Source of the DNA: Roseibium sp. HPY-6
Lineage (GTDB): Bacteria; Pseudomonadota; Alphaproteobacteria; Rhizobiales; Stappiaceae
Assembly (NCBI RefSeq): GCF_040530035.1
Contig: NZ_JBEWCD010000001.1
Span: 558,001 to 622,000, forward strand
Length of the DNA: 64,000 nt
Direction of reading: 5' to 3'
The notes beneath the pieces were generated by a model, which was not told the DNA's origin, did not search any database, and was given only the letters and a program-made list of their open reading frames with translations. Positions 39,849 to 47,408 of the stretch are shown piece after piece (position 1 is the first letter of the stretch; every line of letters begins with the position of its first letter). A program made the translations under genes and the position numbers.

Positions 39849-41426
39849 TCAGTCTCCGTCACGGCCATCGCCATTTTCCGCGATAATCGCGAACGCTTCG
39901 ACGGGTTCCGCAACGTTATGCAGTGTCAAGCTACCGAGGCTCTCTACTGCAAAGCTGATATGACCTGCCACCTCATCTGACGCGACTATTTCCCTGCCAT
40001 GAATCTTGCCATGTTCGCCAAGCCTTGCGGCAATATTGGCCGCGCTGCCAATCACGGTGAAATCAAGCCTTTCCTTTGACCCGACATTGCCATAGGTCAC
40101 ATCGCCATAGGCGATACCTATGGCGCAGGTGAGCGTCAGGTCATTCAGGTTTTCGTCAGGGATTGCCAGCATTCGCACGATTTCATTCGCACTTTCAACC
40201 GCCTGCCGACAGGCATGATCGTGTCCGGTTCCTGCCGGGAAAATCGCAAGCACGGCATCGCCGATAAACTTCAGCACCTCACCTTCATGCGCGTTGACAA
40301 TTTCCGTCGCGGTTTCGAAAAACCTGTTCAAGACGGCGACATAGTCGTCGCGCCCGAGTTCGGATTCAAGGCGTGTGGAGTGGCGCAGGTCGCAGAACAG
40401 GATTGCCGCGTCTATAACGTCGCCATCACCGCGCCGGATCTCTCCCCCCAGCACACGTGCACCGGTGCGTTTTCCAAGATACGTCTCAAGAAGCGATGTC
40501 GCGTTGGACGTCAGCGCAAAGACCTCGAACAAACGGCTAATCAGCGCGGAGCATTCGAAAATCAGCCCGAGATTTGCCGTCGTGAAACCGTTGGGATGAT
40601 CTGAAGCCAATGTAAGAACATTGATCCGTCCATCGGAAAACGGGAGTGGCATTGCCACATAGTCGGTGACACCCTGTTCCTTCAGGTCTTCCATGATCGG
40701 GAAGTTGAACTCGTCCGGATTGGTATCGAGTTTCTGGCGAACACCGCCAAGCCCTTCAGCAACGTGCTGAAAAGGGCTTTCCTTGAAGACCGGACTGTCG
40801 AGAAGCTCATAGGACGGGTATCGGCTGGTCACCTCGTCTTCGTCGCGCTGCCAGATGCAGTTGTGGCCCGCGATCATCGGGTGAAGCGACCAGATGAGAA
40901 TGCTCATTCGGCTGACGGCAACACCGTCTTCAACGAGTTTCTTTCCCAGTGCGGCAAGCAAATCCTGTGGTGTCTTCGCCAGCCACGCCTCACGCAGCAG
41001 CCAATCGACGACCGGGCCCGAGATGTTGCCGGTCGGCATATCCTCAATTTCAGCGCCCTGATGCTCTATCCGCGTCGCAACGCTCGGCATGAATGCAAAG
41101 AAGCCGTCGACGGCCTGTCCTTCCGGGAGCGCATTGGGATAGTGCCAGGCGCCATAATTGAGCACCTCCCCCTCCACTTGGACATGCCTGTAGGAAGCCG
41201 TTCCCTTGAAGGGGCAAAACGTCTTGTGATCGGGCGCAGCAACCAGCTGGGCAACAATGTCCTCAGACGGAAAATAAACGACAGGTGGCAATCGGGTTTC
41301 ATACATGACCCTTGCCCTTGACGAGCGTGCGAGCAGCTTCCCGTCCCGCCAGGCAGTCACCTCCCCCGACAACGGTTCAACCACTATTCCGTAGTCATTT
41401 GATGTCTGTTGCACACGTATGGTCAT
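39849..41426 (-). CDS. DUF427 domain fused to class III nucleotide cyclase
   Basis: The 525-residue protein joins an N-terminal DUF427 domain (about residues 20-110, with the core FCPFKGTASYRHV), a linker of about 200 residues that may be GAF-like, and a C-terminal class III cyclase domain (about 335-515). In the cyclase, metal Asps are D346 (LFCDLRHS) and D390 (FIGDAVLAIF), and K386 with D455 (LDFTVIG) fits ATP specificity; GSAANIAARL carries the transition-state region. No membrane segment. Probably makes cAMP in response to something sensed by DUF427 or the linker. A stand-alone DUF427 gene lies 0.9 kb upstream. Confidence 0.85.
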   Translation of the reverse strand: MTIRVQQTSNDYGIVVEPLSGEVTAWRDGKLLARSSRARVMYETRLPPVVYFPSEDIVAQLVAAPDHKTFCPFKGTASYRHVQVEGEVLNYGAWHYPNALPEGQAVDGFFAFMPSVATRIEHQGAEIEDMPTGNISGPVVDWLLREAWLAKTPQDLLAALGKKLVEDGVAVSRMSILIWSLHPMIAGHNCIWQRDEDEVTSRYPSYELLDSPVFKESPFQHVAEGLGGVRQKLDTNPDEFNFPIMEDLKEQGVTDYVAMPLPFSDGRINVLTLASDHPNGFTTANLGLIFECSALISRLFEVFALTSNATSLLETYLGKRTGARVLGGEIRRGDGDVIDAAILFCDLRHSTRLESELGRDDYVAVLNRFFETATEIVNAHEGEVLKFIGDAVLAIFPAGTGHDHACRQAVESANEIVRMLAIPDENLNDLTLTCAIGIAYGDVTYGNVGSKERLDFTVIGSAANIAARLGEHGKIHGREIVASDEVAGHISFAVESLGSLTLHNVAEPVEAFAIIAENGDGRDGD

Positions 41427-41511: not shown

Positions 41512-42153
41512 TCAGTCTTTGAACCAGGCGTCCCAGGCGCTCCAGTTGTCGACCAGATTGGCAATCATGGCGTATCCGGTACCATCGCAATGCATCTTGT
41601 CGCCCCGGGTAAGGCTGCTCATGTAGTCGCGGTTGGCAAGCAGTGGTGTTTGCAGGTCGAGATAGGGAATGGAGAGAGCCTCCGCCACGGCCTTGAAGCG
41701 TTCATTGAGCTCTTGGCCTCTGCGCTGGGTAAAGGAGACTTCCAGTCCTTCGCTCGGCTGCATCGGTGAACAGGCTTCATTTGCCGGGGGCAAACCAACC
41801 CACAAGGTCGGATACAACGCAGAGACTTCACTTACGAGCGCTTCGGCCTCGGAAATGGAAACGTCTTCCTCAACCTGCCGGCCCTTGTCGGTAACTTCGG
41901 CAATATCGTTCATACCGAACTGGAGTACGACCCGATTATCGGCTCCCTCCTGGAAACGGACATCGCTTTCCTGTTTCCAGCGCAACCGGATTTCCGGTGT
42001 GGTTTCGCCGCGAATTCCCAGATCATAAAACGACAACCGATAGTCCCAAGCGAAACGCCTTTCGCATAGGCGCCCGATCCAGCCAAGGCAGCGCTCGTCG
42101 CCGGTCCCGTTAATATAACTGTCACCGACGAAGCAGATACGCAGGTCCCGCAT
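41512..42153 (-). CDS. SGNH/GDSL-type hydrolase
   Basis: The 213-residue enzyme has the GDSL block I, ICFVGDSYINGTG (nucleophile S12), block III FGMNDIAEV and a C-terminal GDKMHCDGTGY with the catalytic pair D185-x-x-H188. These esterases hydrolyse acyl or acetyl esters, including on glycans and peptidoglycan. No signal peptide, so it is probably cytoplasmic. I place the start at ATG 42153, with GGGAGGA upstream; the longer frame adds 38 unconserved residues. It lies between the two DUF427 genes. Confidence 0.85.
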   Translation of the reverse strand: MRDLRICFVGDSYINGTGDERCLGWIGRLCERRFAWDYRLSFYDLGIRGETTPEIRLRWKQESDVRFQEGADNRVVLQFGMNDIAEVTDKGRQVEEDVSISEAEALVSEVSALYPTLWVGLPPANEACSPMQPSEGLEVSFTQRRGQELNERFKAVAEALSIPYLDLQTPLLANRDYMSSLTRGDKMHCDGTGYAMIANLVDNWSAWDAWFKD

Positions 42154-42362
42154 GCAGTTCCTCCCGAACAATTTGCGATACCGTCGCGCTATTTTCGCGA
42201 CAGGTCCAGTGCCTTGTTGCGGAGCAGACCATGCAGGTTGTTTTTGCTTTGACGGCGTCTGATCCAACGATTCTGTCCAAACGCCGATATCCTTGTCTCA
42301 GAAAACGTCTTTCAAATGGCGGGATATGCTGAGGTCTTGGCGCGCTTGTACGGCCACCAAGA

Positions 42363-42848
42363 TCACCAGAATTCCGTACCCGGAGCGCCTTTGGGCATCC
42401 CGCGAAGGTTTGGTGTAATCCAGCCGCCATAAAACGTACCGGCTTGGGGATCAACGCGCGCGTCGCCAACAAAACACGCATCCATTTTGGTCGCATAAAA
42501 CGCGAGACAGTCTCTGATACTGGAAAAGGACGGCACCGGTTTCTCGTAGGACCATGCCGCGCGGGACGCGGAGATGGATCCGGCTTTTACATCGAAATAC
42601 CGCGCATTTCCCTTCCATTCGCAGAAGCTGGTCCCGGGCACGGGAACAAGGTCACAATCAACGTCTGAAAGCGGAATGTAGTATGTGGGCGGGTGATGTG
42701 TTTCAAGAACGCGCACCGCATTGACTGTGTCGACGATCGTGAGCTTCGAAAGCTCTATTCGTATCCTTTGCGGAACCGCTTCCACGATTGGTGGCCTTGG
42801 ATAGTCTTGAACGTTTTCGATCTCAAGCTCTGGAAACTCGAACGTCAT
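42363..42848 (-). CDS. DUF427 domain-containing protein
   Basis: The 161-residue protein is a single DUF427 domain with a long N-terminal part. Its core FCEWKGNARYFDV repeats the pattern C-x-[WF]-K-G-x-A-x-Y seen in the cyclase fusion (FCPFKGTASYRHV). Both are preceded by a Tyr-[FI]-Pro-x-x-Asp segment (YYIPLSDVD here). The ATG overlaps the previous gene's TGA by 4 bp, so translation is probably coupled. DUF427 has a beta-rich fold of unknown function. Confidence 0.88.
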   Translation of the reverse strand: MTFEFPELEIENVQDYPRPPIVEAVPQRIRIELSKLTIVDTVNAVRVLETHHPPTYYIPLSDVDCDLVPVPGTSFCEWKGNARYFDVKAGSISASRAAWSYEKPVPSFSSIRDCLAFYATKMDACFVGDARVDPQAGTFYGGWITPNLRGMPKGAPGTEFW

Positions 42849-43237
42849 ATGAACCTCGTCAGGACATAAGCTGCAGCTGCAATGTGAGCGAGGGTCACGA
42901 TGACTGAAAGGCTATGAAGCAGCTTGAAACGCGCTTTGTTATTCGCGTCGGATGCGTGATTGATCGCCGGCATGAGTATTTGCCGTGTTGGCACGGTCGA
43001 AAGAGCGATTGCGGCCAAAATGCCCGCTGAGACCGCATTGATCAAGGCGAGGCAAATCGCGGCGATCGCTGACGCGAAAAAGACAAACAGATAAAAGAAA
43101 GGAAACGCTCTCCGGATCGTCGGGCTTGCGACCTCCGGGGGCAAGGCTGAAAACACGAATGCGGCAAATCCAAACGCGTACAGCACCATTCCACCAAAGA
43201 GCAGTGCTGACACCAGCAGCGCAACCGTCTCCATCAT
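42845..43237 (-). CDS. DUF4149-like membrane protein
   Basis: The 130-residue protein has four predicted membrane helices, with FRFKLLHSLSVIVT-type sequence (here ARFKLLHSLSVIVTLAHI) before the last helix, as in DUF4149/TMEM205-like proteins. Its start overlaps the upstream gene by ATGA and its stop overlaps the DUF427 start the same way. It is an inner-membrane protein of unknown role. Family assignment is moderate. Confidence 0.7.
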   Translation of the reverse strand: MMETVALLVSALLFGGMVLYAFGFAAFVFSALPPEVASPTIRRAFPFFYLFVFFASAIAAICLALINAVSAGILAAIALSTVPTRQILMPAINHASDANNKARFKLLHSLSVIVTLAHIAAAAYVLTRFI

Positions 43238-44109
43238 TGGTTCTCCCTTCGCTTCGAAGACCCTGCGGACGGCACTGCCTCCGGATCCATTCCAGCGTTC
43301 TTGTGACCGGTTTTTACGCTCACCCCCGGGATCATGTAGGGCACCTCAGCACGATAGGCCTGAAAGCGATCGCCGAACGCAACATGGAACCGTTTCTCCT
43401 TCAAAAGCGGGGCTGCAAGGCAATAACCTGACAACGCGAGCGCAAGCGCCAGTTGGTCCGGCGTCCAAACCGGAACGGTCCAGAGAGTCAGGGCAAAGGC
43501 TGCATAAATTGGCTGGCGCACGACCCGGAAGAGCCCCCTCACCGGCATGTCGGGATAGACGGGTTTTGCTCCCGCCAGCAGTGACATCCAACCAAGTGCG
43601 CCGGACTGCACTTCAAGCCCGGCATCGAAACTGGCCTTCATCAGCAAAATCCAGGTCGATGCATAAACCGCGCACAGAAGCCAGAACACCGATCCTTCCG
43701 CCTGCCACCAGACTATCCCGGACGGTGTCCAGAAACCGAACAAGGCAATGAGCTGAAGGGAGGCGATCGTTGCATAAGTCGTCGTTGAAAGAGTTGCCCC
43801 ATGAGAACCCGGAATGAGACGCCGCAAAAGGTGGCGGCCCCTTTGTGTCAACAACGCGGAATGGATTAGTGGGAACTGCAACAACAGCAGCAGATTTGCT
43901 GCGGCTGCCCAGGGCCATGGCACTGCTCCAAGGCTTTTGCTCATGCCAAAAAACATTGCTGTGATCATGCACAGCACTGCGGCAGCAAAGACGAAATGGC
44001 AGATTGCGCCATAAAGCACAGCCAGAAGAACACGCTTGGTGCCGGGTGCCGGCTTCATCGCTCCCTGGATCAAGCGGGTAACCCCGGCTATGCGCGGATC
44101 AAGAGGCAT
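43234..44109 (-). CDS. PEMT/ICMT-like integral membrane protein (possible methyltransferase)
   Basis: This 291-residue protein has about six to seven helices. Its C-terminal third, RGLFRVVRQPIYAAF then KEKRFHVAFGDRFQAYRAEV, is the SAM-binding region layout of isoprenylcysteine carboxyl methyltransferase, PEMT, MddA and NnrU-like proteins; the usual RHPxY is RQPIY here. Such enzymes methylate lipids, thiols or small hydrophobic substrates. The gene overlaps the renalase-like gene by 11 bp and the DUF4149-like gene by 4 bp. Activity is inferred. Confidence 0.75.
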   Translation of the reverse strand: MPLDPRIAGVTRLIQGAMKPAPGTKRVLLAVLYGAICHFVFAAAVLCMITAMFFGMSKSLGAVPWPWAAAANLLLLLQFPLIHSALLTQRGRHLLRRLIPGSHGATLSTTTYATIASLQLIALFGFWTPSGIVWWQAEGSVFWLLCAVYASTWILLMKASFDAGLEVQSGALGWMSLLAGAKPVYPDMPVRGLFRVVRQPIYAAFALTLWTVPVWTPDQLALALALSGYCLAAPLLKEKRFHVAFGDRFQAYRAEVPYMIPGVSVKTGHKNAGMDPEAVPSAGSSKRRENQ

Positions 44110-45055
44110 CGAGGTGCTCCAACAGATTTTCCGCTATCGCAACGCCACTCTGCCATGCAGCCTCGACACATGCGTCCAGACACCAGTCCCCGCCAAGATA
44201 GAGCGTCCCGGCACTGTTGCGGACAAACGGTTTGCCAAGTGGCGTCTCAACGTTTGCAAAGCGCCATCGATGAGCGGAGGCGTATCGCACGCTGGAGGGC
44301 GCGAGCCCGAGTTCATCGCAAAGGAGGAAGAGCATTTCTGTCTTGATCTCTTCCGGATCACTTTCCAGGTTGTCCGCGCTCCAGTCCGCATCCGCCTGGG
44401 CAACCCAACAATTCACGTCTTGCCGACCCGGCTTGGAACTGTTGAGGGCAATCCAGGTAAGCGGGTTGTTGGGGACAAAGCGGTTCGTGAATTCGGTGGC
44501 TATTCGCTCAGAAGCTTCGGAAAATGCAGCCATCAATGTCCAGCAAGGCGACATGCGGGCGTGGGAAATCTCCCTCGAGAGCGGATTGCCTGCACCCAGA
44601 AGTGTCAGCGCCTGGGGTTGAGGTACGGTAATGACGAGGTGCTCGCAAAAGATCTCCGAGCCATCTGTAGCGAGTCGCCAACCGTTGCCCGTTTCTGAAA
44701 TGGACGTGACCAATGTGTTTCGCCGGATATCGAGCCCTGCGCCGATCTCCTTCGCAACGGCATTCATCGAAGGCACGCCCACGGTCACCGCACGATCCTG
44801 TACAGGCCACTCGCCTGCCGCACCGGTTCGTGTCAGCTGCTCCAGAAGCGCGTCAAAACCGGACGTTTGCGCCGTTATGAACTGGGCACCGTGATCGAAC
44901 TGAAAACCTAGATCGGTTCGGCGTGTTGCCAGGCGCCCGCCTATGCCTCTGCTCTTTTCAAGGACCAAGGGGCTATGACCGCTCTTCTTGAGCAGCTGCG
45001 CGCAGGACAAGCCTGCAACGCCTGCACCGATGACGCCGATGGGTTGGCTATTCAT
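44099..45055 (-). CDS. Renalase-like NAD(P)/FAD-dependent oxidoreductase
   Basis: The flavoprotein has about 318 residues. It starts IGVIGAGVAGLSCAQLLKK (FAD Rossmann motif), has LEKSRGIGGRLATRR, the second glycine-rich segment typical of amine oxidase and renalase folds, then FDHGAQFITAQ, and ends YLGGDWCLDACVEAAWQSG, the C-terminal FAD closure. Bacterial renalases oxidise dihydro-NAD isomers. I use ATG 45055; a TTG at 45061 is the frame start. First gene of the overlapping cassette that runs through to the stand-alone DUF427 gene. Confidence 0.85.
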   Translation of the reverse strand: MNSQPIGVIGAGVAGLSCAQLLKKSGHSPLVLEKSRGIGGRLATRRTDLGFQFDHGAQFITAQTSGFDALLEQLTRTGAAGEWPVQDRAVTVGVPSMNAVAKEIGAGLDIRRNTLVTSISETGNGWRLATDGSEIFCEHLVITVPQPQALTLLGAGNPLSREISHARMSPCWTLMAAFSEASERIATEFTNRFVPNNPLTWIALNSSKPGRQDVNCWVAQADADWSADNLESDPEEIKTEMLFLLCDELGLAPSSVRYASAHRWRFANVETPLGKPFVRNSAGTLYLGGDWCLDACVEAAWQSGVAIAENLLEHLDAS

Positions 45056-45264
45056 CGGCAAAACCCACGTCCGTCACCTGGCAATCGCGAAGCCGGGTCC
45101 GTCTCGTCCGTCGCGGCGGATGATCATTTGGTCTGGTATCTGGCGTGCGCATGGAGACCGTCCAAGGTAAACAACAGAATGCTTACGTGGATGCGGCCGA
45201 GTTGGATGGCGGCATTGCGCCGCATGTCAGTGCCTTCAGCGCAGTCTTGATCGAGCCCCGGTTG

Positions 45265-46413
45265 TTACACGACCTGACGCACCTGCTCCAGGAATGCGCC
45301 GACCTCGCTCCTTAGAACGTTGCCTTTTTCCTGCAATTCGTCTGCGGCGCTCAGGACCTGAGCTGTCCCGTCAAGCGTTTCGTTCGCCATGGCGCTGATG
45401 GAGCCAATATTTGAGCTGACTTCCATCGCCCCGCTGGACGCCTGGTTGATGTTCCGGGCAATCTCTGACGTGGCAGCTCCCTGCTCTTCGACAGCTGCTG
45501 AAATCGCCGCCGCAATTTCGTTCACCTTGGAAATTGTTCCGCCAATTGAACGGATAAAGTCGACCGCCTGGCCACTGGAGGACTGGATCTCCTTGATCTG
45601 CAGACCGATCTCTTCGGTCGCCTTGGCTGTCTGGCTTGCCAGTTCCTTGACTTCTGCGGCGACAACGGCAAAGCCTTTGCCCATTTCACCGGCGCGGGCC
45701 GCTTCGATGGTCGCGTTCAAAGCCAGAAGGTTAGTCTGATTGGCTATATCGGTGATCAGCGAAACCACTTCGCCGATCTTTTCCGATGCGTCGGACAAGC
45801 CGGTTATCCCTTTGTTCGCCTGCTCGACTTCATCTACTGCCTCACTCGCGATCTTGGCGGACTGGTTGACCTGCTGATTGATCTCGTTGACGGACTGGGT
45901 CATTTCTTCTGTTGCCGCCGCAACCGAACCGACGTTGGAAGACGCTTCTTCGGCATGGCCGGCCACCACTGACGCCTGATCGCTCATGGATGTGGATGTC
46001 TGGTTCATCGACTTCGCGTTGACCTGCATCTGTTCCGCAGCTGCGCTGACGGATTCAACAACACTTGTCATCTGCGCTTCGAAATCACCGACGACCTCCC
46101 GAAAGGAGGTGACACGGCCTTCCATTGCTTCCATTGCATGGTTGATTGAATCGCTCGCCTCACCGAATGAACCCGTCATCCCACGGACTGAAATGCGCCG
46201 GAAATACTTGTTTTGGGAGACGTAGTCGAGTGAAGCCTTGGTTTCGCGCACATAGGCGTCCGTGCGGTCGATCATCCGGTTGATCGCGTGAAGGAGCCGT
46301 CCGGCATCTCCGGTTTCGGTGATATTCAGGACACGGGCTTCAAAATCACCTTCCGCAACGCGTTCGACAATTTCAAGGGCCTTGTTGACAGCCGATTTGT
46401 TGTTTCCAAGCAT
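45265..46413 (-). CDS. Soluble methyl-accepting chemotaxis protein
   Basis: The 382-residue chemoreceptor has no membrane segment. The N-terminal 60-100 residues are HAMP-like ([19 protein letters not shown], then [14 protein letters not shown]). The signalling hairpin has the canonical tip [20 protein letters not shown] and [19 protein letters not shown]. It lacks its own sensor. The gene just upstream (51 bp) encodes a PAS protein of Aer type, so the two probably work together to sense redox or oxygen and control CheA. Confidence 0.92.
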
Positions 46414-46464: not shown

Positions 46465-46989
46465 TCAAAGGCGGGCTATGAACTCGTCATAGGCGATGCC
46501 TTTTCTGCAAAGGAAATCATCAATCAGCTGCTTGGAGGCTTGCAGGCCTTCCTTTCGATTTCCATGACGCTGTTCTTCTTTGAGCAGGTCGTCATAGAGC
46601 GGAAAAATTGCGCTTTCCAGAATGTCGCGATCCGGTACACGGCGGTTCGAATGGTATCCCAGGATCGTGCCGGACCGGTCCCGGCTAGGAGTTACATGTG
46701 CCTGAACCCAATAGTGATCGCCGTTCTTGCACCGGTTCTTGACGTAAGCGAAAATTTCACGCCCGCCCTGAATGAATTCCCAGAGCAGATCAAAAACACA
46801 ACGCGGCATTTCGGGATGTCGAATAATGCTGTGCGGATGGCCGACGCATTCCTTTTCGGTGTAGCCCGCAATTCTCAAAAAGACGTCGTTGCAGTAGGTA
46901 ATTCGACCCTTCAGGTCTGTTTTGCTGACAATAAGCTCGTCTTCACCGAAGAATTGCTCAACACCTGTAACAAGTACATCTCTAGACAT
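46465..46989 (-). CDS. PAS domain protein, Aer-like sensor
   Basis: The 174-residue protein is essentially one PAS domain (about residues 10-120): DLKGRITYCNDVFLRIAGY, then HSIIRHPEMPRCVFDLLWE, and GDHYWVQAHVTPSRD. The RHPEMP and YWVxAxVTP elements are those of the Aer PAS, which binds FAD. A helical tail follows. I start at ATG 46989, with GGGGG about 7 bp upstream; the frame is open 39 codons further. The receptor gene follows by 51 bp. Confidence 0.88.
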   Translation of the reverse strand: MSRDVLVTGVEQFFGEDELIVSKTDLKGRITYCNDVFLRIAGYTEKECVGHPHSIIRHPEMPRCVFDLLWEFIQGGREIFAYVKNRCKNGDHYWVQAHVTPSRDRSGTILGYHSNRRVPDRDILESAIFPLYDDLLKEEQRHGNRKEGLQASKQLIDDFLCRKGIAYDEFIARL

Positions 46990-47408
46990 CTTTGCCCCCA
47001 CAACGAAATCAACCGTCCAGACACCGAAGGCTCTCAGCAAATCAAAGAATAGAAGCTGCGAAACGAGAATAAATTGCGAATAAATTGATCGAAACATGGA
47101 ATACAATCAATAATTGTATCGCAAATTTCTCTCAATACATTTATTCCCCTTCGGAAATCTTGACTTCGTTATTAGACGCAGAAATATTTCTGAGATATTA
47201 ATCCGTTAGAGAAAGTTATCAATCGGAACATGTTTTTGCGCGACATGTCAAAAAAAACTACCCTTGATATAAAAACTGCACGCCGGACAACAAATACTTG
47301 TATAAGTATTAATACATACTCTTTCGGCGCTAGGATAGAAATCTTTCGGAAAGAACGGATACACTTTCTGAAAGTAGCAAAAAAGAATTGCTCAACTTTA
47401 CGGCAACT
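46990..47408. other. AT-rich intergenic region with small palindrome
   Basis: About 420 bp between the PAS gene start and the aldehyde dehydrogenase stop are AT-rich. AATACTT (47293-47299) and AAGTATT (47304-47310) form a perfect dyad with a 4-bp centre. The promoter of the PAS-receptor operon should lie here. No supported gene. Confidence 0.4.

What the first reader, a model, noticed from the sequence alone, without database searches (positions are those of the whole stretch)
39849..41426. DUF427 fused to a class III cyclase beside a stand-alone DUF427 gene
The motif C-x-[WF]-K-G-x-A-x-Y is shared by the fusion (FCPFKGTASY) and the stand-alone protein (FCEWKGNARY). Pairing a DUF427 sensor-like domain with a cyclase having D346, D390, K386 and D455 suggests that DUF427 binds a ligand reported through cAMP. 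The stand-alone copy may bind, make or present the same ligand. This would be a clue to DUF427 function.
Basis: partly seen in the sequence, partly recalled or inferred. Interest (0 to 1): 0.72.

Follow-up and report, generated by a model that had tools for sequence, protein, structure and literature searches.

The report
DUF427-GAF-adenylate cyclase signalling protein
A bacterial enzyme that should make the messenger cAMP carries a little-understood DUF427 domain plus a second sensor-like domain, and the separate DUF427 gene next to it appears to belong to a different, flavoenzyme-linked gene group.

Summary

The link to the stand-alone DUF427 (42363-42848) is weak. It lies beside the fusion in 3 of 20 fusion-bearing genomes, one close clade. 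The two domains fall in different branches, and the shared motif is the family signature. The stand-alone clade instead goes with a renalase-like flavoprotein: 11 of 16 members, in four arrangements, against 0 of 37 fusion and 0 of 14 tandem places in the stretches held.

Best reading: an adenylate cyclase gated by DUF427 and/or GAF-like input, ligand unknown; the stand-alone gene is part of a separate redox cassette.

The parts
39849..41426 (-). DUF427 - GAF-like - class III cyclase, 525 aa
41085..41351 (-). DUF427 (PF04248) domain, residues 26-114; beta-tent fold
41190..41216 (-). motif CPFKGTASY, residues 71-79 (DUF427 family signature)
40497..41024 (-).
40422..40496 (-). conserved linker, residues 311-335, possible cyclase transducer element
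   Evidence: 92% mean pairwise identity in A1; concept from passages of PMC5995499
39966..40421 (-). class III cyclase catalytic domain, residues about 336-487; D346, K386, D390, D455, N464, R468
41512..42267 (-). GDSL-like hydrolase; beside the fusion in G000, G013, G032, G034
   Evidence: Pfam 3.2e-22; neighbourhoods
42363..42848 (-). stand-alone DUF427, CEWKG type, member of the renalase-linked clade
42845..43237 (-). DUF4149 protein, overlaps the stand-alone DUF427 gene by 4 bases
   Evidence: Pfam 9.4e-9
43234..44109 (-). protein with a distant match to methanethiol methyltransferase MddA, far below that model's cut-off
   Evidence: NCBIfam 1.2e-24, 86.9 bits against cut-off 270; no Pfam match
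44099..45061 (-). renalase-like FAD oxidoreductase
   Evidence: renalase 4zcc E 2.7e-47 over residues 6-318

Best explanation
The gene encodes an adenylate cyclase with two N-terminal input domains. A beta-tent DUF427 domain and a GAF-like domain feed through a strongly conserved helical linker into a class III catalytic domain that works as a dimer and turns ATP into cAMP. A small molecule bound by DUF427, by the GAF-like domain, or by both would change the linker and so the rate of cAMP synthesis. Shown by sequence or model: the domains, their order, the complete catalytic residue set, the intact DUF427 signature, and conservation of the architecture. Inferred: catalytic activity, ATP rather than GTP as substrate, dimerisation, and ligand gating. 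The stand-alone DUF427 gene next door is a component of a renalase-like flavoprotein cassette that lies beside the cyclase gene in one clade; it is probably not the cyclase's partner.
Against: No activity or ligand data. DUF427 is the least conserved of the three domains. Full-length model pTM is only 0.55, so the placement of the input domains relative to the cyclase is unknown. The GAF assignment is below Pfam cut-offs. Five other cyclases with the same chassis in this genome lack DUF427, so the chassis does not need it. The fusion, GDSL and stand-alone genes are on one strand with gaps of 85 and 95 bases, so co-transcription in this genome is not excluded. Five of the 16 stand-alone clade members have no renalase-like gene beside them in the stretches held, and of 66 renalase-like places found only 11 have DUF427 within 2 kb.
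Confidence: 0.6

Rival explanations
1. The GAF-like domain is the only sensor; DUF427 is a structural or dimerisation cap with no ligand of its own.
For: The GAF-like/cyclase pair occurs without DUF427 (30 of 52 chassis proteins, a set chosen partly for this; 5 of 6 examined in this genome), and it is more conserved than DUF427 (66% against 54%).
Against: DUF427 signature residues E43, Y51, P53, C71, K74, G75, A77 and Y96 are at 100% in 36 fusion rows, more than a mere cap would seem to need.
Confidence: 0.2
2. DUF427 is catalytic (some beta-tent proteins are enzymes) and the fused protein couples a reaction to cAMP synthesis.
For: A nearly invariant Cys71-x-x-Lys74-Gly and aromatic set over all DUF427 groups; MsrB, an enzyme (recalled), shares the fold (passages of PMC4287342).
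Against: PMC4287342 reports no significant sequence similarity of DUF427 to the other members (passages); no reaction is known to me; a computed, low-grade association with deoxyhypusine monooxygenase is the only enzyme link seen (table passage of PMC5307852); no test here.
Confidence: 0.12
3. One reading: the stand-alone DUF427 binds, makes or presents the ligand that the fusion senses.
For: Same strand, two genes apart, in G000, G013 and G032; independent placement would give about 0.02 such cases in 20 genomes (rough estimate), so the adjacency in this clade is not random scatter, though it may be one event.
Against: 17 of 20 fusion-bearing genomes lack the adjacency, 5 of them although they hold a stand-alone copy of the same clade: in G034 about 3 Mb away, in G007 and G008 at least 320 kb away, in G001 and G004 on another contig. 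Different DUF427 branches and residues.
Confidence: 0.07

Closest known systems
Photoactivated adenylyl cyclases (5mbj; 5x4t)
   Same: class III catalytic domain behind an N-terminal sensor and helical linker; best sequence matches in the PDB
   Different: their sensor is a BLUF light-sensing domain (recalled); here DUF427 plus GAF-like, and the Pfam scan lists no light-sensing domain
DUF427 protein RSPH17029_0682 (3djm)
   Different: stand-alone protein of unknown function (title of the entry)
CULT domain of cereblon, MsrB and other beta-tent proteins
   Same: the beta-tent fold, of which DUF427 is a listed member (PMC4287342, passages)
   Different: no significant sequence similarity; DUF427 lacks the zinc site (same passages)
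Bacterial renalase (4zcc)
   Same: relative of the flavoprotein beside the stand-alone DUF427, E 2.7e-47 over nearly full length
   Different: a neighbour of the stand-alone gene, not a part of the fusion

Membership tests
DUF427 (PF04248) | profile match above gathering score | tested here: met
   84.6 and 96.5 bits against 22.1
DUF427 (PF04248) | fold of 3djm | tested here: met
DUF427 (PF04248) | biochemical function | not testable with these tools
   none given in the passages read
Class III nucleotidyl cyclase | profile match above gathering score | tested here: met
   42.3 bits against 21.9
Class III nucleotidyl cyclase | two metal Asp, substrate Lys/Asp, transition-state Asn/Arg (roles recalled) | tested here: met
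   D346, D390, K386, D455, N464, R468, invariant in A1
Class III nucleotidyl cyclase | cAMP synthesis from ATP | not testable with these tools
   Lys/Asp pair predicts ATP; assay needed
GAF domain | Pfam profile above cut-off | tested here: not met
   GAF_2 14 bits against 28.6; best relative 21.4 against 22.4
GAF domain | GAF fold | tested here: met
Cyclase transducer element | conserved helical element just before the catalytic core | tested here: inconclusive
   position and 92% identity fit, motif not compared residue by residue
Renalase (neighbour 44099-45061) | full-length sequence relation to a solved renalase | tested here: met
   4zcc E 2.7e-47, residues 6-318 of 320
Renalase (neighbour 44099-45061) | oxidation of isomeric dihydro-NAD(P) (recalled) | not testable with these tools
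   needs an assay

The most novel reading that the evidence does not exclude
DUF427 is a metabolite-binding beta-tent domain for pyridine- or flavin-type redox metabolites. The CEWKG stand-alone clade works with a renalase-like flavoprotein (and, in one subclade, a photolyase-like protein) on such a compound, while the CPFKG type was built once into an alphaproteobacterial adenylate cyclase that reports a related compound as cAMP.
Probability: 0.1. Interest if true: 0.8.

Novelty: new variant of a known kind. Interest (0 to 1): 0.42.

Why it matters
DUF427 is a widespread domain with a solved structure and, in the papers seen here, no known function. Fused to an enzyme with an easily measured product, it offers a direct screen for its ligand. 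The gene-order result gives a second, independent lead: one DUF427 clade is tied to a renalase-like flavoprotein, so there are two testable entry points to the same open question. It also steers experiments away from the cassette products as presumed ligands of the cyclase.

Tried and rejected
Conserved neighbours of the fusion were sought in the window and 80 named loci. Many Rhodobacterales loci share a block (RNase HII, DNA methylase, fatty-acid desaturase, a HhH-GPD/NUDIX protein, and a second cyclase about 5 kb away; Pfam on one representative each). It is not seen in the window or in the seven Roseibium/Labrenzia loci drawn, so I take it as inherited gene order, not function.

Apparent recurrent neighbours of tandem DUF427 genes proved to be opposite-strand shadow ORFs of the DUF427 genes themselves (coordinates). 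Other N-terminal domains on the same chassis: Pfam on 10 proteins, 9 of them long chassis ORFs, found none besides GAF (below cut-off) and cyclase at E 0.01; long ORFs may be start over-calls.

The five CEWKG-clade places without an adjacent renalase (G036, G057, G165, G185, G251) stay unexplained; G251's contig is only 3,161 bases. The Fisher value printed assumed that all 83 rows outside the clade had been scanned, which was not shown; I do not use it and give the counts. One search also used 57 renalase places outside the genus; the right number is 54. In one search one row labelled SOLO (L017_11) is a truncated view of the G013 fusion, and I counted it as a fusion.

Papers: 21 hold a word starting with DUF427, among them other DUF427x families (seen); 3 hold it with 'cyclase', and the passages read in those three do not describe a fusion; none holds it with photolyase; 2 hold PF04248 (passages read); none holds NTP_transf_9 or renalase with photolyase and bacteria. 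The other listed papers were seen as listings only. I therefore say only that these searches showed no description in print; databases already carry names such as 'class 3 adenylate cyclase/uncharacterized protein (DUF427 family)'.

Full report
What is there. The minus-strand ORF 39849-41426 codes for 525 residues. Pfam places DUF427 (PF04248) at 26-114, E 4.1e-24, and the class III cyclase domain at 340-487, E 8.2e-11; a GAF_2 match at 190-297 is below its cut-off. The stand-alone gene 42363-42848 is also DUF427, E 8e-28.

The cyclase. D346, K386, D390, D455, N464 and R468 are invariant in the 40 aligned sequences, the window's and 39 homologues. With the usual roles of these positions (recalled), the Lys/Asp pair predicts ATP as substrate. 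The nearest solved sequences are photoactivated adenylyl cyclases (5mbj E 1.4e-19, 5x4t 4.9e-17).

How widespread. A protein search listed its best 120 hits, 57-91% identical; 119 carry both Pfam domains in the precomputed column (P0045, shorter, shows the cyclase only); 3110 proteins passed E 0.001, not all of them fusions. The best 80, kept as loci, all match from residue 1-12 to 505 or beyond and come from Roseibium/Labrenzia, from Rhodobacterales genera such as Leisingera, Ruegeria, Shimia and Phaeobacter, from Rhizobiaceae such as Hoeflea, and from unnamed bins. In 289 class-level genomes, 104 have a match to the middle domain. Of 48 chassis ORFs examined (loci of the best hits plus 18 chosen places, one of them a repeat), 17 carry DUF427 and 31 do not. 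This genome has 7 middle-domain matches; 6 were examined, 1 with DUF427 and 5 without. The tree of 52 chassis proteins puts all 22 with DUF427 on one side of a branch (86/92; 85% of bootstrap trees), consistent with one gain but not proof of it.

The neighbour. One search covered 61 genomes (own plus 60 relatives): 20 have DUF427 in an open frame of 517 aa or more, which I count as fusions; most were not translated one by one. All 20 are of the window's genus, which I take to be Roseibium because the contig length of G013 equals that of a Roseibium record (L033). The stand-alone gene is within 2 kb of the fusion in 3 of the 20: G000, G013 and G032. Their fusions are 82-83% identical to the window's and their stand-alone domains form one clade (100/86), so this may be one event. 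Eight of the 20 have a stand-alone copy placed in the same clade, so 5 of 8 hold it elsewhere. In G034 the renalase, methyltransferase-like, DUF4149 and DUF427 genes lie together about 3 Mb from the fusion, while a GDSL relative stays beside the fusion. In L035, L036 and L042 the aldehyde dehydrogenase, fusion, glutaredoxin and purL genes are present without the cassette. The cassette looks inserted, or kept, beside the fusion in one clade.

Two different DUF427 types. In a tree of 99 DUF427 domains the fusion domains fall with 7 of the 14 first copies of tandem DUF427 proteins (weak fork, 58/97), while the window's stand-alone domain lies in a 16-row clade (98/94) within a 49-row set of stand-alone and second tandem copies (96/99) that holds no fusion. 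Residues 72-73 are P-F in the fusions (100% and 97%) and E-W in the stand-alone clade (100% and 94%), while C71, K74, G75, A77, Y79, W94 and Y96 are common to nearly all. The shared motif therefore shows family membership, not a shared ligand.

What the stand-alone gene goes with. The gene at 44099-45061 is a renalase relative (4zcc, E 2.7e-47). A renalase-like gene lies within 2 kb of a stand-alone DUF427 at 11 distinct places: G000, G001, G004, G007, G008, G013, G032, G034, G041, G070 and G194, all in the 16-row clade. None was found within 2 kb of 37 distinct fusion or 14 tandem places, but only 28 and 8 of these have 2 kb held on both sides, and 36 and 14 have 1 kb; three linked fusions have one at 2.7-3.1 kb because of the cassette. 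Four arrangements are seen: renalase, methyltransferase-like, DUF4149, DUF427 (G000, G013, G032, G034); photolyase-like, renalase, DUF427 (G004, G007, G008; photolyase identified in G004 by Pfam, and PDB); DUF427 then renalase on one strand (G194, G041); divergent (G070). G001's contig ends after the renalase.

Against this. Of 66 renalase-like places found (49, 18, the window's counted in both), 11 have a DUF427 within 2 kb; most renalases do without it. Of 59 places fetched with wide flanks, which leave out the window and six linked places of its genus, 4 have one; outside the genus it is 3 of 54, against roughly 0.3 expected (computed 0.33 and P 0.0045 with 57 places, two DUF427 per genome, and relatedness ignored). 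Five of the 16 clade members have no renalase-like gene in the stretches held.

Mechanism. Most likely the protein is a dimeric adenylate cyclase whose linker is set by the ligand state of DUF427 and/or the GAF-like domain. DUF427 has the beta-tent fold, shared with the ligand-binding CULT domain of cereblon and with MsrB, without significant sequence similarity and without the zinc site (passages of PMC4287342). Whether DUF427 binds, catalyses or only supports is open; the one enzyme link met in print is a computed, low-grade association with deoxyhypusine monooxygenase (table passage of PMC5307852).

Novelty. The parts are known; this combination has database names but no description in the searches made. 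I rate it a new variant of a known kind: a class III cyclase with a DUF427 input.

Noticed in passing
window 44099-45061 and relatives in G001, G004, G007: In three genomes of the genus the renalase-like match carries one TGA inside; decay, sequencing or start effects were not separated.
   Followed up: no
G131 (class draw), e.g. L120: One 2.7 Mb alphaproteobacterial genome has 17 DUF427 matches.
   Followed up: no
L297-L304, L314-L316: Two-domain DUF427 proteins recur in the class; 7 of 14 first copies fall on the same side of the tree as the fusion domains (weak fork). In G066 a tandem gene and a fusion lie about 5 kb apart on one contig.
   Followed up: partly
L048, L065, L111 and other Rhodobacterales loci, about 5 kb upstream of the fusion: A second class III cyclase gene on the other strand lies near the fusion: a cluster with one member in each of 49 of 81 neighbourhoods, one representative checked by Pfam.
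   Followed up: partly
window 45265-46413 and 46465-47106: A chemotaxis-type signalling protein and a PAS protein sit upstream of the cassette, and directly upstream of the fusion in L035 and L036.
   Followed up: partly
G000:C1:2071559-2071825: A third DUF427 gene, of a distant type, in the same genome.
   Followed up: partly
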